This document shows, one piece after another, positions 1,438-32,564 of a stretch of DNA of 32,564 nucleotides. A program made the translations under genes and the position numbers. The notes under the pieces are model-generated. The model saw only the letters and a list, made by a program, of their open reading frames with translations, had not been told where the DNA came from and did not search any database. The DNA is taken from assembly GCA_030834165.1 (NCBI GenBank), contig JAURFU010000024.1:1-32564 (forward strand). Reading direction: 5' to 3'. Numbering within the stretch: position 1 is the stretch's first letter; each line of letters opens with the position of its first letter. This DNA is from Verrucomicrobiota bacterium (lineage in GTDB: Bacteria; Verrucomicrobiota; Verrucomicrobiia; Opitutales; UBA953).

Positions 1438-1466
1438 TTGCGTCCCGGGGGCTTACCGCCTGTTTT
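1438..1466 (+). promoter_or_regulatory. Candidate promoter of sufT operon (leaderless geometry)
   Basis: TTGCGT (1438-1443), a 17-nt spacer and TGTTTT (1461-1466), followed by only 6 nt before ATG 1473. There is no Shine-Dalgarno sequence. The spacing would place +1 at the start codon. The -10 match is only moderate. Confidence 0.4.
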
Positions 1467-1472
1467 CTCAGC

Positions 1473-2018
1473 ATGTCCTCCGTCCATAAGCTCGTCCGCG
1501 ACTGCGCCTCGACCCTGATTCCCGCCGGGGATGTCGTCGTGCTGGAAAAAGGCACGGAAGTCACCGTCACCCAGGCCCTCGGCGGCTCGGTGACCGTGCG
1601 CACCCCGATGGGCCTCTTCCGCATCGCCCCGGCCGACATCGAGGCGCTCGGCGCTGACGCCGTCGACCAATACGGCCAGAAGGACCAAGCCGTCGCCAGC
1701 GGCCCGGTGAATCAGGAAGCGCTCTGGGAAGCCCTCAAGGGCTGCTTCGATCCCGAGATTCCGGTCAACATCGTGGACCTCGGACTCATCTATCACCTCG
1801 AACTCACCCCCGGCGTGCGCGGCGGACAGAAGGTCGCCGCCAAGATGACGCTCACCGCCCAAGGCTGCGGCATGGGCCCGGTCATCGCCGCCGACGCCAA
1901 GTCGAAGCTCGAAGCCCTGCCCGGCGTCGAGTCGGCCGAGGTCGAGATCGTCTGGGACCCGGTCTGGAATCCGCGCATGATCTCCGAAGCCGGCCGCAAG
2001 CAGCTCGGCCTCGAGTGA
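1473..2018 (+). CDS. sufT: SufT-family Fe-S cluster assembly protein (MIP18/DUF59)
   Basis: 181 aa from ATG 1473. An in-frame upstream extension to 1179 overlaps the divergent gene and its promoter region and was rejected. An N-terminal segment of about 75 residues (the long SufT form) precedes the MIP18/DUF59 domain, recognised by DPEIPVNIVDLGLIY (93-107) and TLTAQGCGMGP (126-136) with conserved Cys132. Proteins of this family help Fe-S cluster assembly or maturation of Fe-S proteins in the cytosol. Its stop codon overlaps the next start (TGATG), so it is translationally coupled to hemW, a radical-SAM Fe-S enzyme, which fits the assignment. Confidence 0.85.
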   Translation: MSSVHKLVRDCASTLIPAGDVVVLEKGTEVTVTQALGGSVTVRTPMGLFRIAPADIEALGADAVDQYGQKDQAVASGPVNQEALWEALKGCFDPEIPVNIVDLGLIYHLELTPGVRGGQKVAAKMTLTAQGCGMGPVIAADAKSKLEALPGVESAEVEIVWDPVWNPRMISEAGRKQLGLE

Positions 2019-3157
2019 TGTCCGCGCCCGTCCAGTCCGCGACGGCCCTCTACCTGCACGTCCCGTTCTGCGCGTCGTCGTGCGACTTCTGCTCGTTCTA
2101 CCAGGAACAGCCTAAGCGCGGCGAGATCGACCGCTACCTCGCCGCCATCGAGCGCGAGATGGAGCTCCATCCGCCCGGTCGCGTCGAGACCGCCTTCTGG
2201 GGCGGCGGCACGCCGGGACTCCTGCCCGCCGATGACCTGCGCCGCCTGGGCCACGCGATGACCAAGGCCGCGGGCAAACCCGGCGAATGGACCGTCGAGC
2301 TCGCGCCTTCGTCCGTCCGCGCCGACAAGCTCGCCGCGCTCAAGGAGATCGGCGTCACGCGCGTCTCGATGGGCGTGCAGAGCTTCGACGACGCCACGCT
2401 GGACGCGCTCGGCCGCCGTCATTCGCCCAAGCAGATCATGGAGGCGTGGGAGCTGATCGAGGCCGCCGGCTTCGCCTCGCGCAACCTCGACCTCATCTTC
2501 GCCATCCCCGGCCAGGATGAGAAGCGCTGGACCGACGACCTCGCGCGGGCGATGGAACTCAACCCCGACCACCTCTCGACCTACTGCCTGACCTTCGAAG
2601 AGGACACCGCGATGTTCGTGAAGCTCTCGCAGGGCAAGGTGAAGATCGACCGCGAGCTGGAAGCCTTCCTCTACCGTCGCACCTGGGAGACGCTCGAAGC
2701 AGGAGGTTACGCGCAATACGAGACCTCCAACTTCGCCCGCCCCGGCCATGCCTGCCGGCACAACCTCATCACCTGGGAGATGGGCTCCTGGATCGGTTAC
2801 GGCCCTTCGGCTTCTTCGCAGTGGGGTCACGTGCGCTGGACGAATCCGGCGAACCTCGACCAGTGGATCAAAGGCATCGAAGCAGGCCAGCCCGTGCGCG
2901 AGCAGGCGAAGGCGCTCAGCGCGCGTGACCTGCTGTGTGACGCCTTGGTCTTCGGCCTGCGCCTGAACGAAGGCGTCGACCTCTTCGCGCTCGCCGAGCG
3001 CTTCGAGACCCCCGTGCCGCAGGGCGTGCGCGACCTCTTCGCCGACCTCGTCGAGGAGAACCTCATGGAACTGGCCGGCACCCGCTTCCGCCTGAACGGC
3101 GAGGGCCGCCTCCGGGCCGACGCCGTGGGCGTGGCCGTGCTGGAGAAATTCGACTGA
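2018..3157 (+). CDS. hemW: HemW-like radical SAM protein (coproporphyrinogen III oxidase-like)
   Basis: 379 aa. The start ATG 2018 shares one base with the sufT stop; a GTG three bases earlier is possible but less likely. The N-terminus carries YLHVPFCASSCDFCSF, with the radical-SAM CxxxCxxC cysteines at residues 18, 22 and 25, followed by FWGGGTPGLL and the VSMGVQSFDD and NLDLIFAIPGQ strands usual in HemW. The C-terminal region holds the HemW-type domain (YEISNFA-like YETSNFARPGHACRHN). HemW proteins bind heme and act as heme chaperones; true HemN oxidases have an extra N-terminal part that is absent here. The stop overlaps the next ATG by one base (TGATG). Confidence 0.88.
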   Translation: MSAPVQSATALYLHVPFCASSCDFCSFYQEQPKRGEIDRYLAAIEREMELHPPGRVETAFWGGGTPGLLPADDLRRLGHAMTKAAGKPGEWTVELAPSSVRADKLAALKEIGVTRVSMGVQSFDDATLDALGRRHSPKQIMEAWELIEAAGFASRNLDLIFAIPGQDEKRWTDDLARAMELNPDHLSTYCLTFEEDTAMFVKLSQGKVKIDRELEAFLYRRTWETLEAGGYAQYETSNFARPGHACRHNLITWEMGSWIGYGPSASSQWGHVRWTNPANLDQWIKGIEAGQPVREQAKALSARDLLCDALVFGLRLNEGVDLFALAERFETPVPQGVRDLFADLVEENLMELAGTRFRLNGEGRLRADAVGVAVLEKFD

Positions 3158-4047
3158 TGGACTACGCCCTCGGAGCCGCCTTCTTCTATGCGTGGTCCGT
3201 GACCTGCGCGCGGCGCAGCTCGGCCCACCACGGACCCGACCTCGCGAACCTCGGGCGACTGCTCGTCGCGCTCGTCATCGTCGGGCTCTTCGTGGCGTTC
3301 AGCGGACGCCATCCCTTCAGCGCCGGCTGGGGCTGGCTCCTCCTCGGCGGCGTGCTCGGCCTCGGCGTCGGCGACATCGCCCTCTTCCATGCGCTTCCGC
3401 GCATCGGCGTCGGCCTCACGATGCTGCTCACGCAGTGCCTCGCCGCGCCGATCGCGCTCTTCCTCGAATACGAGATCCTCGACCTCTCGCCCAACGGACC
3501 GCAGCTCTTCGCCGCCTTGGTCATCCTCGCAGGCGTCGCCGTGGCGCTCGGCGCGCCGGCGGAAGGCGACCCCGCCGACCGCCGTACGGGCGTCTGGCTG
3601 GGCCTGCTCTCCGCCTTCGGCCAGGCCTGCGGCGCCGTCGGCACGCCCATGGCGGTCGATGCCTGCGCCCGCGCGGGCGAGACCATTCCCGACGGCTTCG
3701 CGCAAGGGTTCGTACGACTGCTCGGCGGCGTGCCGATCGTCCTGCTCTTCGTCCTCTGGTCGGCCCGCAAGGACGGCCTCCTGGCACGCATCAGCCGTCC
3801 CTACGCCTGGCGCACCGCGCCGGCCTGGATGCTGATGAACGGCCTCGCCGGTCCCGCCTTGGGCGTGGCGTGCTATCAGTGGGCGCTCACCAAGCACGAC
3901 GCCGCGCTGGTGCTGAGCGTCGTGGCGCTGACGCCTCTGATCGGCCTGATCATGCAGTGGGGTGTCGAAGGCGAGCGTCCGTCCTGGCGCCTCTGGGTCG
4001 GCGGCGCGGTCGCCATCGTCGGCGTCGTGCTCCTGCGTCAGCTCTGA
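3157..4047 (+). CDS. EamA/DMT-family transporter
   Basis: 296 aa, very hydrophobic, with about ten predicted membrane segments arranged as two EamA repeats of about 145 residues each. The start ATG 3157 overlaps the hemW stop by one base. The protein begins YALGAAFFYAWSVTCARRS and ends in the typical membrane segment IVGVVLLRQL. DMT proteins export or import small metabolites such as amino acids; the substrate cannot be read from sequence. It is the last gene of the sufT-hemW operon. Its last 10 bp overlap the end of the convergent symporter gene. Confidence 0.85.
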   Translation: MDYALGAAFFYAWSVTCARRSSAHHGPDLANLGRLLVALVIVGLFVAFSGRHPFSAGWGWLLLGGVLGLGVGDIALFHALPRIGVGLTMLLTQCLAAPIALFLEYEILDLSPNGPQLFAALVILAGVAVALGAPAEGDPADRRTGVWLGLLSAFGQACGAVGTPMAVDACARAGETIPDGFAQGFVRLLGGVPIVLLFVLWSARKDGLLARISRPYAWRTAPAWMLMNGLAGPALGVACYQWALTKHDAALVLSVVALTPLIGLIMQWGVEGERPSWRLWVGGAVAIVGVVLLRQL

Positions 4048-6160: not shown

Positions 6161-6917
6161 GACCGGCCAGGATCGCCTCCCAGAGGGCGATGCGCGACTC
6201 GATCGCGGCGACGGAAGCGGCGGCCGCCTCGTCCCACTTACGATCGTCGTCGCCGCAGAGAAGTTCGACCATGCGGAGCGAGATCGCGCCGTGGTGGCCG
6301 CCGTCGACTTCGATGTGGCGCTCGAGGTAGTAGCGGAAGGTGTCGAGCTTGCCCGGATGTTCGCGGCTGAGACGCGTGACGAGTTCCGTGAACATGTCCG
6401 GGATCAGGTCCTCGCGTCCGAACGTGAAGGCCGCGGCGACCTCGTGGGAGCTGCCGTCGGCAGCCAAGGCGAAGGTCGCGCCGGAGAAGGCGGCGGCACC
6501 GGCAGGCACGCCGGCGGAAACCAGGGCCGCGGCGGTCGAGCCGCCCGCGCGCACGGAGGCGAGCGCCTTCTCGACCGCGGAAGTGTCGGCGCCCGCTTCG
6601 CGCATCGCGCGGAGATAAAGGTCGAAGTGGGAGATGCGCGTGCCCTGCGGGTCGACGTCGGACTCCTCGCCGCAGACGATCTCGTTGATCAGGAAGCGGA
6701 CTTCCGCGTCGCCGACCGGCACCCAAGGAACCGTCACGCAGGTCAGGTCACGCTGCAGACGCTTGAGCAAAGACATGAAGTCCCAGACCGCGAAGACGTG
6801 CGACCCCATGAAAACACGCACGTCGTGGAGCGAGGCCATGCGCGCGTAGAGCGGATGCGCGAGCAGGCGGGTGCGAGCCGGAGCGATGCGAGAGCGGATG
6901 GCTTCGAGGCGGGACAT
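6147..6917 (-). CDS. DUF3050 family protein (heme-oxygenase-like fold)
   Basis: 256 aa from ATG 6917-6915. The longer in-frame start at 7043 would add 42 low-quality residues and run across an inverted repeat, so it was rejected. The N-terminus (RTRLLAHPLYARMASLHDVRVF) with H-x-V-F-A-V-W-D-F and the later RYYLERHIEVDGGHHG are the hallmark helices of DUF3050. The conserved His and Glu residues in these helices would bind metal in heme-oxygenase-like diiron relatives. Function is unknown. The first gene-proximal TTGCCT ends 28 nt before the ATG, supporting the chosen start. Confidence 0.75.
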   Translation of the reverse strand: MSRLEAIRSRIAPARTRLLAHPLYARMASLHDVRVFMGSHVFAVWDFMSLLKRLQRDLTCVTVPWVPVGDAEVRFLINEIVCGEESDVDPQGTRISHFDLYLRAMREAGADTSAVEKALASVRAGGSTAAALVSAGVPAGAAAFSGATFALAADGSSHEVAAAFTFGREDLIPDMFTELVTRLSREHPGKLDTFRYYLERHIEVDGGHHGAISLRMVELLCGDDDRKWDEAAAASVAAIESRIALWEAILAGLRAA

Positions 6918-6924
6918 GAACAGG

Positions 6925-6951
6925 AGGGTAAGGGTGAAGGGAGGAAGGCAA
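6925..6951 (-). promoter_or_regulatory. Candidate promoter of DUF3050 gene (leaderless geometry)
   Basis: On the minus strand: TTGCCT (6951-6946), a 15-nt spacer, TACCCT (6930-6925), then 7 nt to ATG 6917. No purine-rich ribosome-binding site is present in the interval. Confidence 0.45.
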
Positions 6952-7036: not shown

Positions 7037-7065
7037 TTGCCACGAGTGAACCAGGCGTCTAACCT
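7037..7065 (+). promoter_or_regulatory. Candidate promoter of four-helix-bundle gene (leaderless geometry)
   Basis: TTGCCA (7037-7042), a 17-nt spacer, TAACCT (7060-7065), then TGGCC and ATG 7071. This is the best -35/-10 pair of its type in the window and selects ATG 7071 over the TTG at 7065. Confidence 0.55.
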
Positions 7066-7070
7066 TGGCC

Positions 7071-7451
7071 ATGGAATCTTCTGCAGAGGGCCCGCCTTAC
7101 CGGCAGCTTAAGGCATGGGCGGAGTCCAGGGACCTGGCGGTGTTGATTTACAAACTTTGCGTGAGACGAACCAAAACGATCGATCGCGGATTGGCCGACC
7201 AGATACGCCGGGCCGCCATTTCCATCCCCTCGAATGTCGCCGAAGGTAACGGCAGGGGCACGAATCGGGACTCGCTGAGATTCCTCTATATCGCCCGCGG
7301 CTCGCTCTGCGAACTCGAGTCACAGATAGACGTCTGCCTGCGTGCAGGCCTGATTGAAACCGGGGAAAGCCGAAACATCACCGACCAAATGGCCTTGGTC
7401 GGAAGGCTGATCGGCGGATTGATATCCTATCGAAAATCCCGTCCCGACTAA
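7071..7451 (+). CDS. Four-helix bundle protein (S23/23S rRNA intervening-sequence protein family)
   Basis: 126 aa. Family hallmarks are YRQLKAWAESRDLAVLIYKL, the DQIRRAAISIPSNVAEG motif, the RFLYIARGSLCELESQID helix and a final RLIGGLISYRKS helix. Relatives are encoded inside 23S rRNA intervening sequences, or act as Avd accessory proteins beside diversity-generating reverse transcriptases; many others stand alone with no known function. No rRNA or reverse transcriptase is near. G+C is about 58% over 7081-7440 by hand count, lower than neighbours (about 66-68%), and codon use is less GC-biased. The gene lies between inverted repeats, which suggests it arrived as a unit. Confidence 0.9.
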   Translation: MESSAEGPPYRQLKAWAESRDLAVLIYKLCVRRTKTIDRGLADQIRRAAISIPSNVAEGNGRGTNRDSLRFLYIARGSLCELESQIDVCLRAGLIETGESRNITDQMALVGRLIGGLISYRKSRPD

Positions 7452-8814: not shown

Positions 8815-8842
8815 TTGCCCTAAGAAAACAGAGGGATAGCGT
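8815..8842 (+). promoter_or_regulatory. Candidate dgkA promoter (leaderless geometry)
   Basis: TTGCCC (8815-8820), a 16-nt spacer, TAGCGT (8837-8842), then 8 nt to ATG 8851. No Shine-Dalgarno sequence. Confidence 0.45.
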
Positions 8843-8850
8843 GCTTTCAG

Positions 8851-9246
8851 ATGTCCAACCAGGAGCCTTACGGCCAGTCGATGAAATCCAAAGGCGGTCT
8901 ATCCCGCCTGTTCAACGCCCTAGGTTACACTTGGGATGGCCTCAAAGCCGCGGCCACCCACGAGGAGGCCTTCAAGCAGGAGCTCATGGTCGTCGTCCCC
9001 CTTTCGGTCGTCGCCTGGTTCGTCCCGGTCAGCCTGCCCGAGAAAGCCCTGCTCTTTTCGTCCCTGCAGCTGATCCTGATCGTCGAGCTCATCAACTCGG
9101 CCATCGAGGCCAACACCGACCATATCTCGCTCGAGCGGCACCCGCTGGCCAAACGGGCCAAGGACATGGGCAGCGCCGCGGTCTTCCTGACCATCGTCAT
9201 CGCCCTGTCCGTCTGGGCCACGGTGCTCTGGCAGAGGTTCGCCTAA
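8851..9246 (+). CDS. dgkA: Diacylglycerol kinase (prokaryotic DgkA type)
   Basis: 131 aa with an amphipathic N-terminus (LSRLFNALGYTWDGLKAAATHEEAFKQE) and three membrane helices. Conserved active-site features are VELINSAIEANTDHIS (Glu and Asn) and HPLAKRAKDMGSAAVFL. It is an inner-membrane trimeric enzyme that phosphorylates diacylglycerol with ATP to phosphatidate, recycling lipid by-products of envelope synthesis; some family members prefer undecaprenol. It is a single-gene unit ended by the hairpin at 9272-9300. Confidence 0.93.
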   Translation: MSNQEPYGQSMKSKGGLSRLFNALGYTWDGLKAAATHEEAFKQELMVVVPLSVVAWFVPVSLPEKALLFSSLQLILIVELINSAIEANTDHISLERHPLAKRAKDMGSAAVFLTIVIALSVWATVLWQRFA

Positions 9247-10870: not shown

Positions 10871-10899
10871 TTGAAGTCGGTTTCTCCGCCTTCAAGGGT
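10871..10899 (+). promoter_or_regulatory. Candidate fabV promoter (leaderless geometry)
   Basis: TTGAAG (10871-10876), a 17-nt spacer, AAGGGT (10894-10899), then 6 nt to ATG 10906. The -10 match is poor; the call rests on spacing shared with other genes. Confidence 0.3.
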
Positions 10900-10905
10900 A
10901 GGCAC

Positions 10906-12108
10906 ATGTCCCAGCAAGTCCTGAAGCCTCGCGTCCGCGGGTTCATCTGCATCACCTCCCACCCCGACGGCTGCGCCGCGGCGGTCCGCGAGCAGATCGC
11001 CTACGTGAAGTCCCGCAAGCCCATCCAGGGCGGTCCGAAATCGGTCTTGGTGATCGGCGCCTCCACGGGTTACGGCCTCTCCTCCCGCATCTCCGCCGCC
11101 TTCGGCTCCGGCGCCGCGACGCTCGGCGTGTTCTTCGAACGCAACGGTGAAGGCGACAAGCCGGGTTCGCCCGGCTGGTATAACACCGCCGGCTTCCATG
11201 CCGAAGCGAAGAAGGCCGGCCTCAAGGCCGTCTCGATCAACGGCGACGCCTTCTCGGCCGAGCTCAAGGCCCAGGTCATCGAAGCGATCAAGTCCAAGAT
11301 GCCCGGCGGCAAGGTCGACCTCGTCGTCTACTCCCTCGCCTCCCCTCGCCGCACCGCACCCGATGGCGTGACCTATAAGTCCGTCCTCAAGCCGACCGGT
11401 GCGCCTTTCCACGCCAAGAACCTCGACACCGACAAGAAGGTCGTGAACGAGGTCACCCTCGAGACCGCGTCCGCCGATGACATCGCGCAGACGGTCAAGG
11501 TCATGGGCGGCGAAGACTGGGAACTCTGGATGAACGCCCTCGACGGCGCCGGCGTCCTCCAGGAAGGCTGCCAGACCGTCGCCTACTCGTACATCGGACC
11601 GCAGGTCACCTGGCCGATCTACAAGGACGGCACCATCGGCAAGGCCAAGGAAGACCTCGAGCGCGCCGGCCGCAAGATCGACGACCTGATGAAGCTGCAC
11701 CGCGGCCGGGCCTTCGTGTCCGTGAACAAGGCCGTCGTCACGCAGGCCAGCTCGGCCATCCCGGTCGTCCCCCTCTACGTGTCCCTGCTCTTCAAGATCA
11801 TGAAGGCCAAGGGTACGCACGAAGGCTGCATCGAGCAGATCCAGCGTCTCTTCGAGAAGCAGATGTATAACGGCAACGCCCTCGACTTCGACGAGAATGG
11901 CCGCGTCCGCATCGACGACTGGGAGATGGCGCCCGACGTCCAGAAGGCCGTCTTCGACGCCTGGCCCCAGGTCACGACCGAGACCTTCGACGCCCACGCC
12001 GACTTCGCCGGCTACCAGACCGACTTCATGAAGAACTTCGGCTTCGGCCTAGCCGGCATCGACTACGAAGCCCCGACCGAAGTCGAACGCCCCATCGAGG
12101 ACGCCTAA
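10906..12108 (+). CDS. fabV: Trans-2-enoyl-ACP/CoA reductase (NADH), FabV
   Basis: 400 aa, the full family length. The Rossmann motif is VLVIGASTGYGLSSR (48-61). The FabV active-site motif Y-x8-K is Tyr239...Lys248 (YKDGTIGKAK); the residue after the Lys is Glu here. The C-terminal FAD-binding-like region holds YVSLLFKIMKAKGTHEGCIEQIQRL. The enzyme reduces the enoyl intermediate in the last step of each fatty-acid elongation cycle. Known FabVs are naturally insensitive to triclosan. The next gene, parA, begins on the base after its stop. Confidence 0.95.
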   Translation: MSQQVLKPRVRGFICITSHPDGCAAAVREQIAYVKSRKPIQGGPKSVLVIGASTGYGLSSRISAAFGSGAATLGVFFERNGEGDKPGSPGWYNTAGFHAEAKKAGLKAVSINGDAFSAELKAQVIEAIKSKMPGGKVDLVVYSLASPRRTAPDGVTYKSVLKPTGAPFHAKNLDTDKKVVNEVTLETASADDIAQTVKVMGGEDWELWMNALDGAGVLQEGCQTVAYSYIGPQVTWPIYKDGTIGKAKEDLERAGRKIDDLMKLHRGRAFVSVNKAVVTQASSAIPVVPLYVSLLFKIMKAKGTHEGCIEQIQRLFEKQMYNGNALDFDENGRVRIDDWEMAPDVQKAVFDAWPQVTTETFDAHADFAGYQTDFMKNFGFGLAGIDYEAPTEVERPIEDA

Positions 12109-14701: not shown

Positions 14702-14730
14702 TTGCCACGGGACCGCCTCGGGCTTGGATG
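14702..14730 (+). promoter_or_regulatory. Candidate promoter of Sel1-like gene (leaderless geometry)
   Basis: TTGCCA (14702-14707), a 17-nt spacer, TGGATG (14725-14730), or TTGGAT one base earlier, then 5-6 nt to ATG 14736. Confidence 0.4.
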
Positions 14731-14735
14731 TGTCC

Positions 14736-15686
14736 ATGCGCCGCAAACTCGAACGGCTCCGCCCCTACCTCTTCGGAGCCGGCCTCGCCGTCGTACTCAC
14801 CCTCGACCTCGCCAACCAGTGGGAAGTGCCGGTCGCACAGCTGCCCGGGGAGTTCTTCGACCGCTACTTCTCGGGCCTCGACCCGTGGTCCGAACCCTCC
14901 GAAATCCTTAGGCTCGCCGAAGCGGGCAACAAACAGGCGCAATACGTCTACGCGTTACGCCACACGGCCTATGCTCCGGTGGAGCTCCAGCTCAAGGAAG
15001 ACAAGCCTTTGGCGTTCCGCTGGACACAGGAAGCGGCGAAGAAAGGCCACTCGCGGGCCATGGCCGTGCTGGCGCTTTACCTCCTCCGCGGCACCGGCAC
15101 CGCCAAGGACAGTGTCGCGGCCCGGACCTGGGCGGAGCAAGCCATCGCCAAAGGACAACCGATGGGCTACCGTGTCCTCGGCGACCTCTGCCTCGAAGAA
15201 GCCGACGCGGCGCAGAAGGCTGCGGGAGGTTCGATGGACAAGACCGCCTATGCGGCCTACGAGCGTACGCTTCGGCAGGCTTACGCATACTATCGACGCG
15301 GAGCCGATGCCGGCGACCGCGTCTCTTTACGCAAGCTAGCCGAGGGCCACGACAAAGGCGTGCCCGGCATCCCCCGAGACTACGACCTTGGAACCGAGTT
15401 ACTCCGCCGGGCGGCGATGCGCCGCGACCTCGAATCGATAGAAAATCTCTCCGCTCGGCTGGAAGAAGGCCACAAATCTCCGCGCGACATGGCCGAGGCT
15501 TACGCTTGGCGCCTGGTGCTGGCCCAGCTGACCGGCAAGCAGGAGCACACCGATAAGCTCGGCCTCATGGAACAGCTCATGCGCCTGGAGGAAGTCCGCA
15601 CCGGGCAGAAGGCCGCCGCTCAGATTCTCGCGGAACTACCCTCGGAGGCATCCGACGCTCTTTCGCGCCTCCATACCGTCCGCTGA
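14736..15686 (+). CDS. Sel1-like repeat (SLR) protein with N-terminal membrane anchor
   Basis: 316 aa from ATG 14736; an in-frame GTG at 14730 is possible. Residues 10-32 (YLFGAGLAVVLTLDL) form a membrane anchor or uncleaved signal. Then come degenerate Sel1/TPR-type helical repeats: LAEAGNKQAQYVYALR, WTQEAAKKGHSRAMAVLALYLLRGTG, WAEQAIAKGQPMGYRVLGDL, YYRRGADAGDRVSLRKLAEGHDKG. Such repeats bind other proteins. It probably faces the periplasm. It sits 2 bp before the next gene and likely shares a transcript with it. Confidence 0.75.
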   Translation: MRRKLERLRPYLFGAGLAVVLTLDLANQWEVPVAQLPGEFFDRYFSGLDPWSEPSEILRLAEAGNKQAQYVYALRHTAYAPVELQLKEDKPLAFRWTQEAAKKGHSRAMAVLALYLLRGTGTAKDSVAARTWAEQAIAKGQPMGYRVLGDLCLEEADAAQKAAGGSMDKTAYAAYERTLRQAYAYYRRGADAGDRVSLRKLAEGHDKGVPGIPRDYDLGTELLRRAAMRRDLESIENLSARLEEGHKSPRDMAEAYAWRLVLAQLTGKQEHTDKLGLMEQLMRLEEVRTGQKAAAQILAELPSEASDALSRLHTVR

Positions 15687-15992: not shown

Positions 15993-16021
15993 TTGACGCA
16001 TCTGTCCTTCCCGCCTCGATA
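15993..16021 (+). promoter_or_regulatory. Candidate mfd operon promoter (leaderless geometry)
   Basis: TTGACG (15993-15998), a 17-nt spacer, TCGATA (16016-16021), then 5 nt to ATG 16027. The -10 match is weak. Confidence 0.35.
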
Positions 16022-16026
16022 GCGGC

Positions 16027-19000
16027 ATGTCCGCTCAGCCACGCCGTGCCCTGACCGGCGTGCCTTCGCACGCCTGGGCCGCCTGCGCCTGTTCGGAAGG
16101 CGCCCGGCGAGGCGTGATCGTCTTCCTGGCCTCGAACCTGGGCGCGGCCGAGACCTTCGCCGAAGAGACCGCCCAGCTGCTCACCTTGCTCAACGACGCC
16201 AAGCCCGTCGCCCGCACGCTGACGGAAGCGGACGCCGCCGTGCCGGCCTTCGAGGCCGACTGCGACCTCCTCGGCGTGCTCTCGCTCCTGCGTCACGGCG
16301 GCCATGACGCGAAGCGGCCCCTCCTCATCGCCTGCACGCCCGGCGCGCTGACCCGCCGCTCGCCCGCGCCGGAAGCCACGGCCAAGGCGGAGATCGTCGT
16401 CCGCAAGGGCGAGAAGCTCGCCCTGCGTGATTTCGCGAAGCGCCTCGCCGAGGACTTCGGCTACGCCCACGAAGCGCTTTGCGAACAGCCCGGCGAATAC
16501 GCGCTCCGCGGCGGCATCCTCGACGTCTACCCGCTCAACGCGCAGATGCCGGTGCGCATCGACCTCTTCGGCGACGTCGTCGAATCCCTGCGCCCTTTCG
16601 ATCCCGCCACGCAACGCAGCGAAGGCGAGGTCGACGGCTTGGTCATCTGCGCCCCGCGCGACGATTCCGGCTCGGCGCCCGAAGCCCCCTTCTTCCGTCA
16701 CCTGCCGGCCGACGCGCTCGTCGTCTCCGTCGACCGCTGCCATGAGGACGTCCTCTGCGCGGAACTCCATGCCGCGGCGGTCGACGAACTCGTGCTGGAG
16801 GAAACCGACGACGCCCCGGCCGGCTACGCCGCGCAGGCGCTCGAATCCGCGCCCGCCGAGTCCTTGCTCATCGGTTCGGCGACCGACAGCGCCGAAACCC
16901 GGCCCGCCCTCCTGAAAGCCGCGGCTTCGCTCGCCAAGGACGGGCGCCCTTGCCTGCTCGCGGGCGACACCGACGGATCAGTCGACCGGCTCAACGCCGA
17001 CGTCGCCTGCGCCAAGATCCGCGGCTTCGCCCCGCGCGTCATCCCAGGACGTTTCGGCGGCGGCGTGATCGTCGCACCGGGCAAGCTGCCCGGCCTCCTC
17101 AACGACGGCCTGATCCTGCTCACCGAGCGCGAGCTCTTCGGACGACGCAAACGGCCCCTCGCCGTCCTGCCGCGCCGCCGTACCGCCATCCGCGCCGCCG
17201 TCGGCCGCGCCCTCGACTTCGGCGAACTCGCCGATGGCGACGCCTTGGTGCACGCGACGCAGGGCGTCTGCCTCTTCCGCGGCATCAAGGCCCACGAGCA
17301 CGACGGGCGCACCGAGGATTTCATCGGCCTCGAGTTCGCCGAGAAGTCGATGCTGCACCTCCCCGTGCGGGAGTCGCACCTGCTCACGCGTTACATCGGC
17401 ATCGGCCGCGCGCACCCCAAGCTTTCCAAGCTCGGCGGAGGCGGCTGGGAGAAGTCGCGCAAGGCCGCCGAAAAGGCCACCGCCGACCTGGCCGCGCAGC
17501 TGCTGGCGATGCAGGCCGCCCGCTCGACCAAACCGGGCATCACCCATCCCAAGGACGCGGACAACGCCTGGATGGGCGAGTTCGAGCGCTCCTTCCCGCA
17601 CCGCGAGACGCCGGATCAGACGCGCGCGATCCTCGACGTGAAGGCCGACATGGAACGCCCTGCGCCCATGGACCGGCTCGTCAGCGGCGACGTCGGCTTC
17701 GGCAAGACCGAGGTCGCGCTGCGCGCCGCGTTCAAGTGCGTGCTCGGCGGACGACAGGTGGCGATCCTCGCGCCCACGACCGTCCTCGCGCAGCAGCACT
17801 TCGAAAGCTTCAAGGAGCGCCTCGCCCGCTGGCCGGTCTCCGTCGAACTCCTGAGCGGTTACCGCACCGCCAAGCAGAAGGCCGACGTCCGGGCGCGCGC
17901 CGCGGCCGGGACCGTCGACGTCGTCGTCGGCACGCACGCCCTGCTCTCCGACGGCACGAGCTTCGGCAAGCTCGGCCTCGTGATCATCGACGAGGAGCAT
18001 CGCTTCGGCGTGCGCCATAAGGAACGCCTCAAGCAGCTGCGGACCGAGGTGGACGTCCTCGCCATGAGCGCGACGCCCATCCCGCGGACGCTCTACCTGG
18101 CGCTCGTCGGCGCCCGCGACCTCAGCGTGATCGAGACCCCGCCGCGGGAACGCCTGCCCATCCGCACCATCGTGCGCAGTTACGACGAGAAACTCGTCCG
18201 CGACGCCGTGAAGGCCGAGCTCGCCCGCGGCGGCCAGGTCTTCTACCTGCACAACCGCGTCGAGACCATCCAAGCCGTCGCGGAACGCCTCGCCGCGCTC
18301 GTGCCCAAGGCGCGCATCATCGTGGGGCACGGCCAGATGCCGGCGGGCCAGCTCGAGGAGGTCATGTCCGCCTTCGTCGCCGGCGAATACGACGTGCTCG
18401 TCTGCACGACCATCATCGAGACCGGTCTGGATATCCCGAACTGCAACACCCTCATCATCGAGGGCGCCGACCGCTTCGGCCTCGCGCAGCTCTACCAGCT
18501 GCGCGGGCGCGTGGGCCGCTTCAACCGCCAGGCCTACGCCTACCTCTTCCTGCACCGGCATGCCGCGCTGGTCGGCACGGCGCACCGACGCCTGTCGGCC
18601 ATCCGCCAATACAACCAGCTCGGCGCCGGCTTCCGCATCGCCATGCGCGACCTCGAGCTGCGCGGCGCGGGCAACATCCTCGGCGCGGCCCAGAGCGGCC
18701 ACGTCGCGACCGTCGGCTTCGACCTCTACTGCCAGCTCCTGCGCCGGAGCGTCGCCAAGCTCCGCGGCGACAAGGGCGCGGTCGTCGAACGCTGCGAGGT
18801 ACGGTTGGACTTCATCGACCACACCCAGGCCGCGCTCGGGACCGAACAGGCGAACAGCAGCGAAGGCGACGTGCCCCTGCTGACCGCCACCCTGCCCTCG
18901 GATTGGATTCCCGAGACCCGCCTGCGCATCGAAGCCTTCCGGCGCATCGCCCTGGCCTTGGACGCCGCCGAGGTGGCCGAACTCCGCACCTCGCTCAAGG

Positions 19001-21849: not shown

Positions 21850-23515
21850 GACGGCGGTATTTCGGACGGCGCGGCGTGTCCGACTCGAGGCCGAGGCGCT
21901 TGCGCCGGTCCTCGAGGTAGTCGCCGTAGTTGCCTTCGTGCCAGAACACCGTGCTGTCGTCCTCGAAAGCGAGGATGTGCGTGGCCACGCGGTCGAGGAA
22001 CCAGCGGTCATGCGTCACGATCACCGCGCAGCCCGCGAAGCCCTCGAGGGCGTCCTCGAGCGCGCGGATGGTGTTCACGTCGAGGTCGTTGGTCGGCTCG
22101 TCGAGCAGGAGCACGTTGGCGCCGGACTTGATGAGGCGCGCGAGGTGGATGCGGTTGCGTTCGCCGCCCGACATCACGCCGACCTTGCGCTGCTGGACGT
22201 CGCCGGTGAAGCCGAAGCGGGCCGCGTAGGCGCGGGCCGGCACCATGATCTTGCCGAGATGGACCATCTCCTGGCCGTCGGAGATCGCGGACCACAGCGG
22301 CGCGTCGGCCTGGAGCGAATCGCGGGACTGGTCGACGTAGGCGATCTTGACCGTGTCGCCGACCGTGAGCGCGCCCTTGTCGGGCTTCTCCTGGCCCGTG
22401 ATCATGCGGAAGAGCGTCGTCTTGCCGGCGCCGTTGGGGCCGACCACGCCGACGATGCCGCCGGCGGGCAGCGAGAAGTTCACGTCGTCCATCAGGATGC
22501 GGTCGCCGTAGCCCTTGGTCAGGCCGCGGGCCTCGATGACGGCGCCGCCGAGGCGGGGGCCGGGCGGGATCCAGATCTCGGCCGCCTTCTCCTGCTGGTT
22601 CTGGTCCTGGGCGAGCATCTGTTCGTAGGCGCGGAGGCGGGCCTTGTTCTTGGCCACGCGGGCCTTGGGCGAAGCGGCGGCCCACTCGCGTTCGCGCTCC
22701 ATCGAGCGGGAGCGCGCGGCGGACTGCTTCTCCTCCATCTCGAGGCGTTGCTGCTTCTGCTGGAGCCAGGAAGAGTAGTTGCCCTTCCAGGGGATGCCGC
22801 GGCCGCGGTCGAGCTCGAGGATCCAGCCGGCGACGTTGTCGAGGAAGTAGCGGTCGTGGGTGATCGCGATGACCGTTCCCTTATAGCCCTGGAGGTGACG
22901 TTCGAGCCAGGCGACCGTGTCGGCGTCGAGGTGGTTGGTCGGCTCGTCGAGCAGGAGGATGTCCGGCTCCATCAGCAGCAGGCGGCAGAGCGCCACGCGG
23001 CGCTTCTCGCCCCCGGAGAGCGCCGAGACGACGGCGTCGCCCGGCGGGCAGCGCAGGGCTTCCATCGCCATCTCGATGCGGGCGTCGAGGTCCCAGCCGC
23101 CGCGCGTGTCGAGGATCGTCTGGATCTCGCCTTGGCGGGCCAGGATCCTCTCCTGCTCCTTCGCGTCGTCGGTCTCCGAGACCTTGACGAACGTCTCATC
23201 GTATTCCTCAAGCAAGGCCTTCATCGGGCCGGCGGCCTGCATCACGCACTCCTGCACCGTCAGATGTTCGTCGAGGCGCGGCTCCTGGGCGAGGTAGCCG
23301 AGCGTGTAGCCGGGCACCTGGCTGATGGCGCCGTCGAACTCCTTGTCCTCGCCGGCCATGATCTTGAGCAGCGTGGACTTGCCCGAGCCGTTGAGTCCGA
23401 GGACGCCGATCTTGGCTCCGTAATAGTACGACAGTGAAATATCGCGGAAAACGGGTTTCTTTTCGAAGTACTTCGTGACCCCCGTCATCGTGAAGATTAC
23501 TTTTTCGTCGGCCAT
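21839..23515 (-). CDS. ettA: Energy-dependent translational throttle protein EttA (ABC-F)
   Basis: 558 aa from ATG 23515-23513. Two ABC domains without membrane segments: Walker A GLNGSGKST, signature LSGGEKRRVAL and LLLDEPTNHLD in the first; GPNGAGKTT, MSGGERNRIHL and LLLDEPTNDLD in the second. An Arm insertion and the linker (about 240-330: QQKQQRLEMEEKQSAARSRS, SPKARVAKNKARLRAYEQ) mark it as the EttA type. EttA binds the ribosomal E site and controls entry into elongation by ATP level. It is divergent from nusA. Confidence 0.95.
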   Translation of the reverse strand: MADEKVIFTMTGVTKYFEKKPVFRDISLSYYYGAKIGVLGLNGSGKSTLLKIMAGEDKEFDGAISQVPGYTLGYLAQEPRLDEHLTVQECVMQAAGPMKALLEEYDETFVKVSETDDAKEQERILARQGEIQTILDTRGGWDLDARIEMAMEALRCPPGDAVVSALSGGEKRRVALCRLLLMEPDILLLDEPTNHLDADTVAWLERHLQGYKGTVIAITHDRYFLDNVAGWILELDRGRGIPWKGNYSSWLQQKQQRLEMEEKQSAARSRSMEREREWAAASPKARVAKNKARLRAYEQMLAQDQNQQEKAAEIWIPPGPRLGGAVIEARGLTKGYGDRILMDDVNFSLPAGGIVGVVGPNGAGKTTLFRMITGQEKPDKGALTVGDTVKIAYVDQSRDSLQADAPLWSAISDGQEMVHLGKIMVPARAYAARFGFTGDVQQRKVGVMSGGERNRIHLARLIKSGANVLLLDEPTNDLDVNTIRALEDALEGFAGCAVIVTHDRWFLDRVATHILAFEDDSTVFWHEGNYGDYLEDRRKRLGLESDTPRRPKYRRLTR

Positions 23516-23520
23516 GCGGG

Positions 23521-23549
23521 AAGGTTCGGAGAAGACCCCCCGGGGGCAA
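23521..23549 (-). promoter_or_regulatory. Candidate ettA promoter (leaderless geometry)
   Basis: TTGCCC (23549-23544), a 17-nt spacer, AACCTT (23526-23521), then CCCGC and ATG 23515. No ribosome-binding site in the interval. Confidence 0.4.
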
Positions 23550-23582: not shown

Positions 23583-23611
23583 TTGACATCCCCCCGGGGG
23601 TGGCCAAGGTA
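23583..23611 (+). promoter_or_regulatory. Candidate nusA operon promoter
   Basis: TTGACA (23583-23588), a perfect -35 box, 17-nt spacer, AAGGTA (23606-23611). It would start an RNA at about 23618 with a leader of about 84 nt before ATG 23702, unlike the leaderless neighbours. Confidence 0.5.
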
Positions 23612-23621
23612 ACCGTCAGTT

Positions 23622-23661
23622 CACCTTTACCGAGGTGGGTCCTGCCGGACCCGCTTTTTTT
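23622..23661 (+). terminator. Terminator-like hairpins in nusA leader (possible attenuator)
   Basis: A first hairpin CACCT - TTACCG - AGGTG (23622-23637) is followed by GGGTCC - TGCC - GGACCC (23637-23652), then GC and seven T (23655-23661). The second is a classic intrinsic terminator shape. It lies between the TTGACA promoter and nusA, so it could stop transcription before the operon. The two hairpins share base 23637. Confidence 0.6.
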
Positions 23662-23701
23662 GTCCCCAAATCATTTCACCGAAAAACCCGCACCCATCAC
23701 C

Positions 23702-24949
23702 ATGAGCGTCGATATCAAACCCTTCCTCCAATATCTCGAAAAGGAGAAGAACATCAAAAAAGAAGAGGCCTGCGCCCTCATCGTCGAGGCCATCAAGTCC
23801 TCCGTCGAGAAGTCGGTCATGGCCGGCCAGAACGTCGAAGTGAACGCCGACCCCGTGTCCGGCAAGCTCGAGGCCCATGTCGTCCTGCGCGTGACCGACT
23901 CCGTATCCGACCCGCTCCAGGAGATCAACCCGGTCGCCGCCTCCCTCATCGACGCCGACATCAAGGTCGGCCAGGAAGTCCGCAAGCCGATCAAGGTCGA
24001 GGACCTCGGCCGCATCGCCGCCAAGACCACCCAGCAGCTGCTCAACCAGCGCTTCCGCAAGATCGAGAAGGACCAGGTCTTCCAGGAGTACAAGGACAAG
24101 GTCGGCGACATCGTCACCGGCACCGTCCGCCGCACCGAGCGCGGCAACGTCGTGATCGAACTCGGCACCGCCGAAGCCGTCCTCACCCACAAGGAGCGCT
24201 GCCACGGCGACGAATTCCGCACCGGTGACCGCATCCGCTGCCTCCTCCTCGAGATCCGCGAAGACCCCCAGCGCGGCCGCGAGTTCGTGCTCTCCCGCGC
24301 CAACCCGGCCTTCGTCCGCCGCCTCCTCGAGCTCGAGGTCGCCGAGATCGCCGACAAGACCGTCACCATCGCCGCCATGGCCCGCGACCCGGGCTACCGC
24401 ACCAAGATCGCCGTCGACTCGCGCGACCCCAAGGTCGACCCCGTCGGCGCCTGCGTCGGCGCCCGCGGCGCCCGCGTCCGCAACATCGTCAAGGAACTCG
24501 GCGGCGAGAAGATCGACATCATCCGCTACCACGCCGAGCCGCTCAAGCTGCTCGAGGAAGCCATCCGCCCGGCCAAGCCGCGCAACGTCCGCATCGACGA
24601 GCGCAGCCGCTCCATCTTCTTCGAAGTGGATGAGGATGACATGCGCATCGCCATCGGCAGCAAGGGCCGCAACGCCCGCCTGACCTCCAAGCTCATGGGC
24701 TGGGGCCTCAACATCCAGAAGGCCACGCACGCCGCCGAAAGCTTCGAAGCCAAGGCCGGCGACGCCGCCGTCCGCATCGCCGAGCAGCTCGGCCTCCCCG
24801 CCGAGCTCATCGCGAAGTTCGTCGGCCTCGGCATCTCCAGCGTCGACGCCCTCGAAGGCGCGACCGCGGAGGACTTCCAGGAAAGCGGCATCCCGGCCGA
24901 GGAGGTCGAAGCCGTCCTCTCCGCCTACGCCAAGGTCCGCCGTTCGTAA
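23702..24949 (+). CDS. nusA: Transcription termination/antitermination factor NusA
   Basis: 415 aa from ATG 23702; the upstream GTG at 23600 would include the leader hairpins. N-terminal domain (EACALIVEAIKSSVEKSV), S1 domain (about 135-200: GDIVTGTVRRTERGNVVIEL), then two KH domains with DPVGACVGARGARVRNIVKELGGEKIDI and the second with IAIGSKGRNARLTSKL. A C-terminal HhH/AR-like repeat follows (about 365-415). NusA binds RNA polymerase and promotes pausing and hairpin-dependent termination. No rimP precedes it. No Shine-Dalgarno sequence is seen. Confidence 0.97.
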   Translation: MSVDIKPFLQYLEKEKNIKKEEACALIVEAIKSSVEKSVMAGQNVEVNADPVSGKLEAHVVLRVTDSVSDPLQEINPVAASLIDADIKVGQEVRKPIKVEDLGRIAAKTTQQLLNQRFRKIEKDQVFQEYKDKVGDIVTGTVRRTERGNVVIELGTAEAVLTHKERCHGDEFRTGDRIRCLLLEIREDPQRGREFVLSRANPAFVRRLLELEVAEIADKTVTIAAMARDPGYRTKIAVDSRDPKVDPVGACVGARGARVRNIVKELGGEKIDIIRYHAEPLKLLEEAIRPAKPRNVRIDERSRSIFFEVDEDDMRIAIGSKGRNARLTSKLMGWGLNIQKATHAAESFEAKAGDAAVRIAEQLGLPAELIAKFVGLGISSVDALEGATAEDFQESGIPAEEVEAVLSAYAKVRRS

Positions 24950-28862: not shown

Positions 28863-28864
28863 GG

Positions 28865-29344
28865 TCAAGAGGCGAGCTGGCGCTCGAGGGCGGCGATTTC
28901 GTCGCGCAGGCGCGCGGCGGCTTCGAAGTCTTCGCCGGCGACGGCGGCGGCCATCTCGAGCCGGGCGGCGTCGAGGCGACGGCGCAGCTGGGCGACGGGC
29001 ACCACCCCGGCGGGCGCGCGGCCGACGTGCGCGGGCTCATGCTGGACCTTGAGGAGCAGGCCGCCGAGGGCTTCTCCGAAGGTCTCCCAGCAGGACGGGC
29101 AGCCGAGACGGCCGCGCTTGCGGAAGTCGAGGTCGGTGAAGCCGCACTGCGGACACGTCAACGTCGGCGCCGGCGTCGGCGCCGCCAAGGCGTCGGCGAG
29201 CTGGAAGACCGCCGGATCGGTCGCCCCGCCCTTCTGGGCGCAGGCTTCGCAAAGGTGCACCTTCCTGACCTTGCCGTGGACGACCTGGGAGAGGTGGACC
29301 GTGGCGGCCTCCTCGCACAGCGAGCACTGGATCGGCTGGGACAT
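28865..29344 (-). CDS. mcsA: McsA-like zinc-finger/UVR protein, activator of McsB
   Basis: 159 aa. Four CxxC pairs (Cys7/10, 32/35, 64/67, 82/85) form two zinc-binding units. The C-terminus has a UVR motif (about 117-157: LRRRLDAARLEMAAAVAGEDFEAAARLRDEIAALE). McsA activates McsB kinase in Firmicutes. An alternate reading as a UvrB/UvrC-motif protein is covered by this family. It is cotranscribed with mcsB (2-bp gap). Confidence 0.92.
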   Translation of the reverse strand: MSQPIQCSLCEEAATVHLSQVVHGKVRKVHLCEACAQKGGATDPAVFQLADALAAPTPAPTLTCPQCGFTDLDFRKRGRLGCPSCWETFGEALGGLLLKVQHEPAHVGRAPAGVVPVAQLRRRLDAARLEMAAAVAGEDFEAAARLRDEIAALERQLAS

Positions 29345-29351
29345 CGCCCAT

Positions 29352-29380
29352 CAGACAACTCGGCCGCGGCCGATTGGCAA
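29352..29380 (-). promoter_or_regulatory. Candidate mcsAB promoter (leaderless geometry)
   Basis: TTGCCA (29380-29375), a 17-nt spacer, TGTCTG (29357-29352), then 7 nt to ATG 29344. No ribosome-binding site. Confidence 0.4.
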
Positions 29381-29429: not shown

Positions 29430-29434
29430 GGAGG
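29430..29434 (+). promoter_or_regulatory. Shine-Dalgarno site of beta-ketoacyl synthase gene
   Basis: GGAGG 7 nt before ATG 29442; it favours that start over ATG 29409 and ATG 29427. However, TTGGCA at 29374-29379 lies exactly 29 nt before ATG 29409, which would fit the leaderless pattern, so the start is not settled. Confidence 0.6.
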
Positions 29435-29441
29435 AAGTCAG

Positions 29442-31070: not shown

Positions 31071-31098
31071 TTGCCGACCCTCGCCCCCTCCCTACGCT
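31071..31098 (+). promoter_or_regulatory. Candidate promoter of secreted hypothetical gene (leaderless geometry)
   Basis: TTGCCG (31071-31076), a 16-nt spacer, TACGCT (31093-31098), then 7 nt to GTG 31106. No ribosome-binding site. Confidence 0.45.
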
Positions 31099-31105
31099 GG
31101 CTTAC

Positions 31106-32077
31106 GTGCACCCCGTCCGACGCCTCCTCTTCGCCGCGTTCTCCCTGGCCGCCGCCCTGCCGGCCTCCGCTGAAACCGTCCAGTTACGCCGCAACGGCAA
31201 CGCGACGGTCATCGCCTTCGAATACATCACCCAGGACGAGACGACCATCATGGTCAAGCGGCTGGACGCCGACGTGGTGCTGACCTACCGGTGGGAGGAC
31301 CTCGACGCCGAGTGGATCAAGCGGAACAACCCCAAGCTCTGGGCCGAACGCGAACTGATGCTCGAACTCGAAAAGCCGGAGAAGAAGATGGCCGCCAAGG
31401 AGGTCGAGGATCCCTTCGCCCAGCAGGCCGTGGCGACCGACAGCAAGTCCTTGATCAGGAACCTCGTGGTCTCCCTGCAGGACGGACTCAAGGGCATGTC
31501 GCTGACCGCCAACCGCATCGACATCGTGTGCAACGAGTTCCAGCTGGACGAAAACCTCTTCTGGCTGGGCTTCGACGACCTGAAGCGCGCCAGCACGCTC
31601 TCCGGCAAGGCCGAACCTCCCCCCCGGGTCGCCGAGAGCACGGCCGACGACACCCCGACGTCCAAGACCAAGACCAAAGGAAAGACCGCGACCAAGAAAG
31701 CCCGCAGCCCGGAAAGCGTCGCCGCCGAAGCCGCCGCCCGGAAGGATTTCGAGACCGAAGCCCGTCCGTATAACGCGCTGGGATACCTGCGCATGCTCGC
31801 GGAAGGCGGGACCAAAGGGAAACCGGCCTGGATGATGCTCCGTCGCTCGACCGCCGACCGGGAGGCGATCAAGACCCTGCTGACCAACTACGCGAAGCAG
31901 GCGGAGGAACTCGCCGAGAAGCCCGAAGGCAAGGCCAGCAAGACCGAACTCCTGGTCCTGAAGAAGGCCCTCGAGAACTGCGCCGAGTCGGTCGGTCGCG
32001 TGACGCGCGAATATAACGCCGTCGAAGCTCGCCTGCAGACGGATTGCCGCACGGTGCTGACGCTGGCCCTGCGCTGA
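31106..32077 (+). CDS. Secreted hypothetical protein
   Basis: 323 aa with GTG start. Residues 1-22 (HPVRRLLFAAFSLAAALPASA) are a signal peptide with A-S-A cleavage. The mature part is helical and charged, with a small N-terminal strand-rich segment (VQLRRNGNATVIAFEYITQDE) and a Lys/Thr-rich linker (about 185-205). The C-terminal third is predicted coiled helix (LLTNYAKQAEELAEKPEGK). No family is recognised. It may be periplasmic. It is convergent with tRNA-Ala and shares the terminator at 32101-32133. Confidence 0.75.
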   Translation: MHPVRRLLFAAFSLAAALPASAETVQLRRNGNATVIAFEYITQDETTIMVKRLDADVVLTYRWEDLDAEWIKRNNPKLWAERELMLELEKPEKKMAAKEVEDPFAQQAVATDSKSLIRNLVVSLQDGLKGMSLTANRIDIVCNEFQLDENLFWLGFDDLKRASTLSGKAEPPPRVAESTADDTPTSKTKTKGKTATKKARSPESVAAEAAARKDFETEARPYNALGYLRMLAEGGTKGKPAWMMLRRSTADREAIKTLLTNYAKQAEELAEKPEGKASKTELLVLKKALENCAESVGRVTREYNAVEARLQTDCRTVLTLALR

Positions 32078-32228: not shown

Positions 32229-32257
32229 AACAAAGGTGACCGCACGGCCACGGTCAA
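32229..32257 (-). promoter_or_regulatory. Candidate tRNA-Ala promoter
   Basis: TTGACC (32257-32252), a 17-nt spacer, TTTGTT (32234-32229), then 16 nt to the tRNA 5' end. Confidence 0.45.
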
Positions 32258-32287
32258 CGCTTTTTTCCCACCCTGCCGAGTCTCTGA

Positions 32288-32316
32288 TTGCCAACAGCCT
32301 TGGGGTGCTTTGCCTT
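32288..32316 (+). promoter_or_regulatory. Candidate promoter of exonuclease gene (leaderless geometry)
   Basis: TTGCCA (32288-32293), a 17-nt spacer, TGCCTT (32311-32316), then 6 nt to GTG 32323. The -10 is poor; the spacing matches other genes. Confidence 0.35.
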
Positions 32317-32322
32317 CCCTGC

Positions 32323-32564
32323 GTGGAAGCGTCCGAAAATCAGCCAGAATCCGCCGAACCAGGCATCGAGGCCCGGTCCAACGGCCAAAGCGGCCGCGGC
32401 CAAGGGGGCATCCGCATCGAGAAGGATTTCATCGAATCCCTACCCGTGGGCGAGTGGACCGGACCGATCGAGCTGATCGAATCCGAGAAGGAAGCCGCCA
32501 AAGCCATCGCCTCGCTCGCCCGTGACCGCGTGCTGGGCTTCGACACCGAGACCAAGCCTTCGCA
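32323..32564 (+). CDS. 3'-5' exonuclease (DEDD/RNase D-like), N-terminus only
   Basis: 80 codons seen, open to the right edge. I chose GTG 32323 (MEASENQPES) because of the upstream promoter spacing; GTG 32305 is the alternative. After a disordered N-terminus, residues from about 32 read IRIEKDFIESLPVGEW and IELIESEKEAAKAI, then DRVLGFDTETKPS, the first catalytic motif (DxE) of DEDD 3'-5' exonucleases. The rest of the active site lies outside the window. Substrate (RNA or DNA) is unknown. Confidence 0.75.
   Translation, partial: MEASENQPESAEPGIEARSNGQSGRGQGGIRIEKDFIESLPVGEWTGPIELIESEKEAAKAIASLARDRVLGFDTETKPS

What the first reader, a model, noticed from the sequence alone, without database searches (positions are those of the whole stretch)
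1438..32325. Recurrent promoter box at fixed distance from start codons suggests widespread leaderless mRNAs
In eleven genes a TTGCC/TTGAC-like hexamer ends 28-30 nt before the start codon: sufT (1438), DUF3050 gene (6951, minus), four-helix-bundle gene (7037), dgkA (8815), fabV (10871), Sel1-like gene (14702), mfd (15993), ettA (23549, minus), mcsA (29380, minus), secreted hypothetical (31071) and exonuclease (32288). A -35 box, 15-17-nt spacer, -10 box and 5-8 nt would put +1 at or next to the start codon. None of these starts has a Shine-Dalgarno site; clear sites are seen only at rpmB and the ketosynthase. Several -10 boxes are weak, so the shared spacing is the main evidence. A second set (NHL gene, aminotransferase) has the box 34 nt away, and rpoZ and rpmB both 50 nt away.
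Basis: partly seen in the sequence, partly recalled or inferred. Interest (0 to 1): 0.75.

Follow-up and report, generated by a model that had tools for sequence, protein, structure and literature searches.

The report
Promoters set flush against start codons
In this freshwater bacterium roughly a quarter of the genes that head a transcription unit appear to have their promoter placed so that the messenger RNA would begin at the start codon itself, an uncommon way of starting protein synthesis that is here betrayed mainly by the far (-35) half of the promoter.

Summary
All eleven boxes lie at -34 to -36 from the stated start codons. In about a third of the genome (739 kb outside the window), gene-called without upstream signals, TTG begins at -35 in 29 of 277 promoter-proximal genes, 4.5 expected, with no peak before operon-internal genes. 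Aligned on TTG alone, a -10 box appears 16-17 nt further on. A fixed sigma70 two-box model with +1 at the start codon fits 27% (21-33%) of these genes, at most 6% at 13 shifted anchors. Shine-Dalgarno-like motifs are rarer than in control stretches. In six genes orthologues keep the box within 1-2 nt of its distance to ATG or GTG. Relatives in the same class show the signal to varying degree; a member of another class and E. coli do not. Widespread leaderless or nearly leaderless mRNAs are well supported by sequence; 5' ends were not measured. Leaderless mRNAs are already known in this phylum (Akkermansia, 10% of start sites). New here, as far as my searches show: the order Opitutales, and that the mark is the -35 box; in this genome a -10-only model sees nothing.

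The parts
1438..1473 (+). sufT promoter, TTGCGT at -35, ATG at 1473
   Evidence: TTG at -34/-35 in 7 of 7 distinct upstreams kept, window included
6917..6951 (-). DUF3050 gene promoter, TTGCCT at -34, TACCCT, ATG at 6917
   Evidence: Pfam PF11251; CTTGC near -35 in some relatives, shifted or with uncertain starts in others
7037..7071 (+). four-helix-bundle gene promoter, TTGCCA at -34, TAACCT, ATG at 7071
   Evidence: no usable orthologue in the loci searched
8815..8851 (+). dgkA promoter, TTGCCC at -36, TAGCGT; distance drifts in relatives
10871..10906 (+). fabV promoter, TTGAAG at -35, AAGGGT
   Evidence: TTG at -35 in 14 and -36 in 1 of 15 distinct upstreams; Pfam
14702..14736 (+). Sel1-repeat gene promoter, TTGCCA at -34, TTGGAT
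   Evidence: -34 in 5, -39 to -41 in 12, none in 1 of 18 distinct upstreams
15993..16027 (+). mfd promoter, TTGACG at -34, conserved CTCGATAG before ATG
   Evidence: TTG at -34/-35 in 33 of 33 distinct upstreams; Pfam
23515..23549 (-). ettA promoter, TTGCCC at -34, AACCTT
   Evidence: TTG at -34 to -36 in 30 of 30 distinct upstreams
29344..29380 (-). mcsA promoter, TTGCCA at -36
   Evidence: TTG at -36/-37 in 8 of 8 distinct upstreams kept
31071..31106 (+). secreted-protein gene promoter, TTGCCG at -35, TACGCT, GTG start
   Evidence: relatives mixed: TTG at -35 to -37 with GTG in 4 of 6 upstreams, no start codon or TTG there in 2
   Evidence: TTG at -35 and GTG in 7 of 7 distinct upstreams kept; no Pfam family in the 80-aa fragment
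23583..23702 (+). contrast: nusA promoter (TTGACA) with a leader of roughly 85 nt and a terminator-like hairpin
   Evidence: NusA_N and KH_5 domains

Best explanation
The boxes are -35 elements of housekeeping (sigma70-type) promoters. Each is followed after about 16-17 nt by a weak -10 element ending about 7 nt before the start codon, so RNA polymerase should start at, or within about 2 nt of, the A or G of ATG/GTG. The mRNA then has no leader and no Shine-Dalgarno site, and ribosomes would engage the 5'-terminal start codon directly, as for other leaderless mRNAs. About a quarter of promoter-proximal genes in this Opitutales genome have this arrangement; others have short or ordinary leaders (nusA, rpmB, rpoZ). 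Shown: positional peak, two-box architecture, constrained distance in several genes, lack of SD. Inferred: transcription start and mode of translation.
For: Peak of TTG at -35, 29 of 277 vs 4.5 expected, absent from internal genes. A sigma70 matrix not fitted to these data puts -10 boxes at -12, where +1 is the start codon, in 27 of 277 vs 4.0 per position. Fixed two-box mixture: pi 0.27, log-likelihood 80, at most 0.06 and 8.0 at 13 shifted anchors; bootstrap 0.21-0.33. TTG-aligned peak genes show T/A/T enrichment at offsets 22-23 and 27-28. SD-like 4-mers: 3 of 54 peak genes and 10 of 211 others (12 genes with TTG at -37 or -33 only were left out) vs about 11% in control stretches. Footprints, identity to window: exo box 1.00, spacer 0.43, -10 region 0.95; fabV 0.96/0.63/0.86; mfd 0.97/0.68/0.89. 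Controls: E. coli pi 0.01, own internal genes 0.00, G016 0.00. Published Cappable-seq: Akkermansia muciniphila, same phylum, 10% leaderless TSS (PMC4782308, passages).
Against: No 5' end was measured. -10 boxes are weak: the strict pattern TA...T at -13..-11 is not enriched in peak genes (1 of 54 vs 6 of 211), and a -10-only model sees nothing in this genome (pi 0.04). The -35-only model has pi up to 0.21 at shifted anchors, so single-box hits are not specific. For sel1, dgkA and nhl the distance changes among relatives, implying short leaders there; two-box hits are also raised at -18 (15 vs 4.0). In G034 the single highest TTG count is at -42 (12), with -36 second (11). Start codons come from my own caller, which agreed with annotation in 89 of 122 E. 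coli genes and 64 of 109 on D. radiodurans MP1. A version of the model that learned its matrices overfitted (0.99 for E. coli, 0.47 at one shifted anchor of the own genome) and was discarded.
Confidence: 0.85

Rival explanations
1. Ultrashort leaders: the same promoters start transcription 3-10 nt upstream of the start codon, so mRNAs have a few leader bases rather than none.
For: Two-box hits are raised over -18 to -11, not only at -12; sel1, dgkA and nhl relatives have the promoter about 5-8 nt further up.
Against: The sharpest excess in the own genome is at -12 (27 vs 4.0 per position) and TTG peaks at exactly -35; mfd, fabV, mcsA, sufT and exo distances vary by at most 1 nt.
Confidence: 0.3
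2. The true start codons lie further downstream, so these promoters make ordinary leadered mRNAs and the N-termini are misread.
For: Start calling without upstream signals is imperfect; nusA was first called at a GTG overlapping its promoter, whereas the NusA N-terminus starts 102 nt later.
Against: A start codon is kept at the same place in every distinct upstream kept for mfd, fabV, ettA, mcsA, sufT and exo (start-codon identity 1.00); the peak persists with unambiguous starts (23 of 186 at -35 vs 2.8).
Confidence: 0.05
3. The box is a regulator operator or translation signal at fixed distance, not a promoter element.
For: Most of the likelihood is in the -35 block (68 of 80).
Against: It matches TTGAC/TTGCC, pairs with a -10-like block at 16-17 nt spacing, heads functionally unrelated genes, and is absent before operon-internal genes.
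Confidence: 0.04
4. Chance, or selection of boxes by the reader.
For: TTGCC or TTGAC occurs 130 times on the two strands of the window.
Against: The peak was found in sequence outside the window with starts called blind, and an excess at -36..-34 again in G002 (21 vs 6.1), G011 (15 vs 5.4) and G034 (25 vs 10.1).
Confidence: 0.01

Closest known systems
Leaderless genes of Akkermansia muciniphila (Cappable-seq, PMC4782308)
   Same: Same phylum; 10% of mapped start sites sit at annotated gene starts (passages read).
   Different: There the 5' ends are measured. In G034 the -10 box alone is detectable (log-likelihood 16.2 vs at most 1.3 at shifted anchors), in the window's genome it is not (1.3 vs 1.1).
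-10-led leaderless genes of Deinococcus-Thermus and Actinobacteria (PMC3160421, PMC12340547)
   Same: Promoter so close that the -10 box lies about 10-12 nt before the start codon (passages and one section read).
   Different: There TANNNT is the mark, and most such D. radiodurans genes lack a classical -35. My D. radiodurans MP1 control agrees: TA...T at -12 in 6 of 71 vs 0.5 per position, no TTG peak at -35, clear SD sites. Here it is the reverse: -35 strong, -10 weak, SD nearly absent.
SD-scarce bacteria that keep CCUCC in 16S rRNA (PMC10783764)
   Same: That survey lists Akkermansia and Verrucomicrobia bacterium IMCC26134 as SD-scarce (passages); SD-like motifs are scarce here too, and CCTCC is kept in the 16S tails of G034 and G088.
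   Different: The passages I read do not tie the scarcity in these bacteria to promoter position. No 16S was found in the window's genome, so its anti-SD is untested.

Membership tests
Leaderless bacterial genes | 5' end of the mRNA at, or within a few nt of, the start codon | not testable with these tools
   No transcript data; inferred from promoter position only
Leaderless bacterial genes | Promoter -10 box about 10-12 nt upstream of the start codon | tested here: met
   Two-box hits with -10 starting at -12: 27 of 277 vs 4.0 per position
Leaderless bacterial genes | No Shine-Dalgarno site before the start | tested here: met
Leaderless bacterial genes | Arrangement confined to promoter-proximal genes | tested here: met
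   Internal genes: TTG at -36..-34 in 3 of 195, expected 1.6; pi 0.00
-10-led (TA-like) leaderless class of Deinococcus/Actinobacteria | TANNNT detectable on its own at about -12 | tested here: not met
   -10-only model pi 0.04, log-likelihood 1.3, shifted anchors up to 1.1; TA...T at -12 in 3 of 277
sigma70-type promoter | TTGACA-like and TATAAT-like boxes 16-18 nt apart | tested here: met
   -10 composition emerges at offsets 22-23 and 27-28 from TTG; conserved block pairs in orthologues; consensus hexamers and matrix recalled
Leaderless bacterial genes | Translated from a 5'-terminal start codon by 30S-IF2 or 70S ribosomes | not testable with these tools
   Recalled mechanism

The most novel reading that the evidence does not exclude
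In Opitutales leaderless or nearly leaderless mRNAs are the default for genes that head a transcription unit. Shine-Dalgarno initiation has been largely given up there and kept at most weakly inside operons, and initiation at 5'-terminal GTG is routine. Because the mark is the -35 box, surveys that look for a -10 box within 20 nt of the start would miss it.
Probability: 0.3. Interest if true: 0.72.

Novelty: new variant of a known kind. Interest (0 to 1): 0.5.

Why it matters
It adds a group of freshwater bacteria to those in which much translation probably begins without a leader or Shine-Dalgarno site, and shows that the signal can lie in the -35 rather than the -10 box. Start-codon annotation in these genomes could be improved by a -35/-10 model, and cultured Opitutales become a place to study leaderless initiation, including at GTG, in a cell with little Shine-Dalgarno use.

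Tried and rejected
a gene caller seeded on the longest ORFs learned the antisense frame; replaced by one seeded on four window genes, which still miscalls some regions (28155-30683, nusA start); the mixture with learned matrices overfits; only fixed-matrix results are used. One search ended in a script error after the main output; the listing was redone. C at -1/-2 looked like a start-site mark but is equally strong before internal genes, so not used. The strict TA...T pattern is not enriched in peak genes. The consensus promoter scans found 0 sites where 1.3 and 0.6 were expected, being too strict for these -10 boxes. Start-codon use: TTG starts in 0 of 54 peak genes vs 19 of 211 others (p 0.02, and possibly a calling artefact); second codons did not separate the groups clearly. 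16S searches gave none in the window's genome and hits in 3 of 12 relatives. Weak or partial signal, told for balance: G088 TTG at -36..-34 13 vs 7.7 expected (p 0.05); G028 11 vs 4.6. In one search plain column identity is low for ettA, mcsA and sufT because of 1-2-nt shifts.
Full report
What the window is. It is one contig (C67) of a 2.25-Mb, 150-contig genome, 81% complete. Its Mfd protein finds freshwater Opitutae/Opitutales MAGs (Verrucomicrobiota) at 83-96% identity among its nearest loci. G+C is 67% in the window and 64% in the rest of the sample.

The observation. Searches confirm all eleven boxes, first T at -34 to -36 of the stated start codons, and the second set (NHL gene, aminotransferase, rpoZ, rpmB).

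Is it more than chance? I took 739 kb of the same genome outside the window and called genes with a codon model that uses no upstream signal. Of 565 scored genes outside the window, 277 have at least 50 nt of upstream gap (my 'promoter-proximal' genes) and 195 are operon-internal (same strand, gap under 25 nt). TTG begins at -35 in 29 of 277, expected 4.5; at -36..-34 in 54, expected 13.4. With unambiguous starts it is 39 of 186 (expected 8.5), in divergent pairs 24 of 133 (expected 6.5), in internal genes 3 of 195 (expected 1.6). When the 54 peak genes are aligned on TTG only, T, A and T are enriched at offsets 22, 23 and 27-28, that is, a -10 box after a 16-17-nt spacer.

How many genes? A sigma70 matrix that was not fitted to these data puts a -10 box at -12, where +1 is the start codon, in 27 of 277 genes against 4.0 per position. 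In a fixed-matrix mixture 27% of the 277 (bootstrap 21-33%) carry the two boxes with +1 within 2 nt of the start codon; 13 shifted anchors give at most 6%. The -35 block alone carries most of the likelihood (68 of 80; shifted anchors up to 16), the -10 block alone almost none (1.3; shifted anchors up to 1.1). Start-calling errors should dilute the figure: the caller agreed with annotation in 89 of 122 E. coli genes and 64 of 109 on D. radiodurans MP1.

Shine-Dalgarno. GGAG/GAGG/AGGA in -17..-4 occurs in 3 of 54 peak genes and 10 of 211 other promoter-proximal genes, against about 11% in control stretches; internal genes 24 of 195 (control 10.6%). In G016, of the same phylum but not the same class, it is 29 of 72 (control 7%).

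Controls and relatives. Pi in the fixed two-box model, with the highest value at shifted anchors (and where higher): G002 0.29 (0.09; 0.13), G011 0.19 (0.08; 0.09), G028 0.14 (0.05; 0.07), G034 0.26 (0.11; 0.12), G088 0.22 (0.07; 0.11), G016 0.00 (0.16; 0.17), E. coli K-12 0.01 (0.17), D. radiodurans MP1 0.07 (0.15), own internal genes 0.00. D. radiodurans shows its known -10-only pattern instead (TA...T at -12 in 6 of 71 vs 0.5 per position). The -10 block alone is visible in G034 and G088, faint in G002 (log-likelihood 2.4 vs 0.1), and not above shifted anchors to any degree in the own genome, G011 and G028. G088 has a higher G+C (66.9%) than the own sample (64.1%), so base composition alone does not explain the weak -10.

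Footprints. Distinct upstreams, window included: mfd 33 of 33 at -34/-35, fabV 15 of 15 at -35/-36, ettA 30 of 30 at -34..-36, mcsA 8 of 8 at -36/-37, sufT 7 of 7 at -34/-35, exo 7 of 7 at -35 with GTG. Dropped before these counts: 3 of 10, 4 of 10 and 1 of 8 hits for mcsA, sufT and exo (N-terminus not aligned, too short, or, for mcsA and sufT, under 60% identity: paralogues); for mfd, fabV and ettA hits not aligning from the first three residues were dropped without count. The boxes are conserved while the spacer and the last 6 nt drift (exo 1.00 and 0.95 vs 0.43 and 0.56). sel1 (-34 in 5, -39 to -41 in 12, none in 1 of 18 upstreams), dgkA (-36 to -42 in 7) and nhl (-39 to -45 where a box is seen; 7 of 23 without a start codon at the aligned place) drift, consistent with short leaders. 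The secreted gene is mixed.

Mechanism. The simplest reading is housekeeping promoters whose +1 is the start codon, giving leaderless mRNAs read from a 5'-terminal ATG or GTG (route through 30S-IF2 or 70S recalled, not tested).

Literature. Zheng 2011 (PMC3160421, passages) defines bacterial leaderless genes by TA-like signals about 10-12 nt upstream, with 20-nt upstream stretches in its example genome; the term Verrucomicrobi- does not occur in its main text. Cappable-seq found 10% leaderless start sites in Akkermansia (PMC4782308, passages). PMC10783764 (passages) lists Akkermansia and IMCC26134 as SD-scarce. Searches for leaderless with Verrucomicrobia, Verrucomicrobiota, Opitutus and Akkermansia listed, as far as titles, abstract openings and those passages show, no report on Opitutales. 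The GeneMarkS-2 paper was not held, and a domain-wide motif scan (PMC12340547, section 11) gives its phylum figures only in a figure I could not see, so earlier in-silico assignment of such genomes cannot be excluded.

Noticed in passing
window 23583-23702: nusA has a TTGACA promoter and a leader holding a terminator-like hairpin followed by a T run (23632-23657). The stretch is almost invariant in 18 distinct leaders, window included, with a T-A to C-G compensatory change in L021, L027 and L028; no Rfam family reaches its gathering score, though the fold itself is only modest (z -1.4): a candidate nusA attenuator.
   Followed up: partly
window 23537-23600: The palindrome CCCCCGGGGG occurs twice in 772 kb of this genome, both times here, inside the spacers of the divergent ettA and nusA promoters. 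A near copy is kept in 27 of 30 ettA upstreams but in only 2 of 8 nusA ones; it is not rare in the loci (31 in 606 kb).
   Followed up: partly
window 32288-32325: A GTG start with both promoter boxes at fixed distance is kept in 7 of 7 distinct upstreams kept: a good case for leaderless initiation at GTG.
   Followed up: partly
window 9323-9610 and 8487-8790: rpmB and rpoZ have strongly conserved TTGCCA promoters about 56 nt upstream (rpmB 9, rpoZ 5 distinct upstreams); rpmB keeps an AGGAG-like site.
   Followed up: no
G016 stretches L197-L206: A member of the same phylum but another class uses Shine-Dalgarno sites strongly (29 of 72 promoter-proximal genes), unlike the six sampled genomes of the window's class, own included.
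   Followed up: partly
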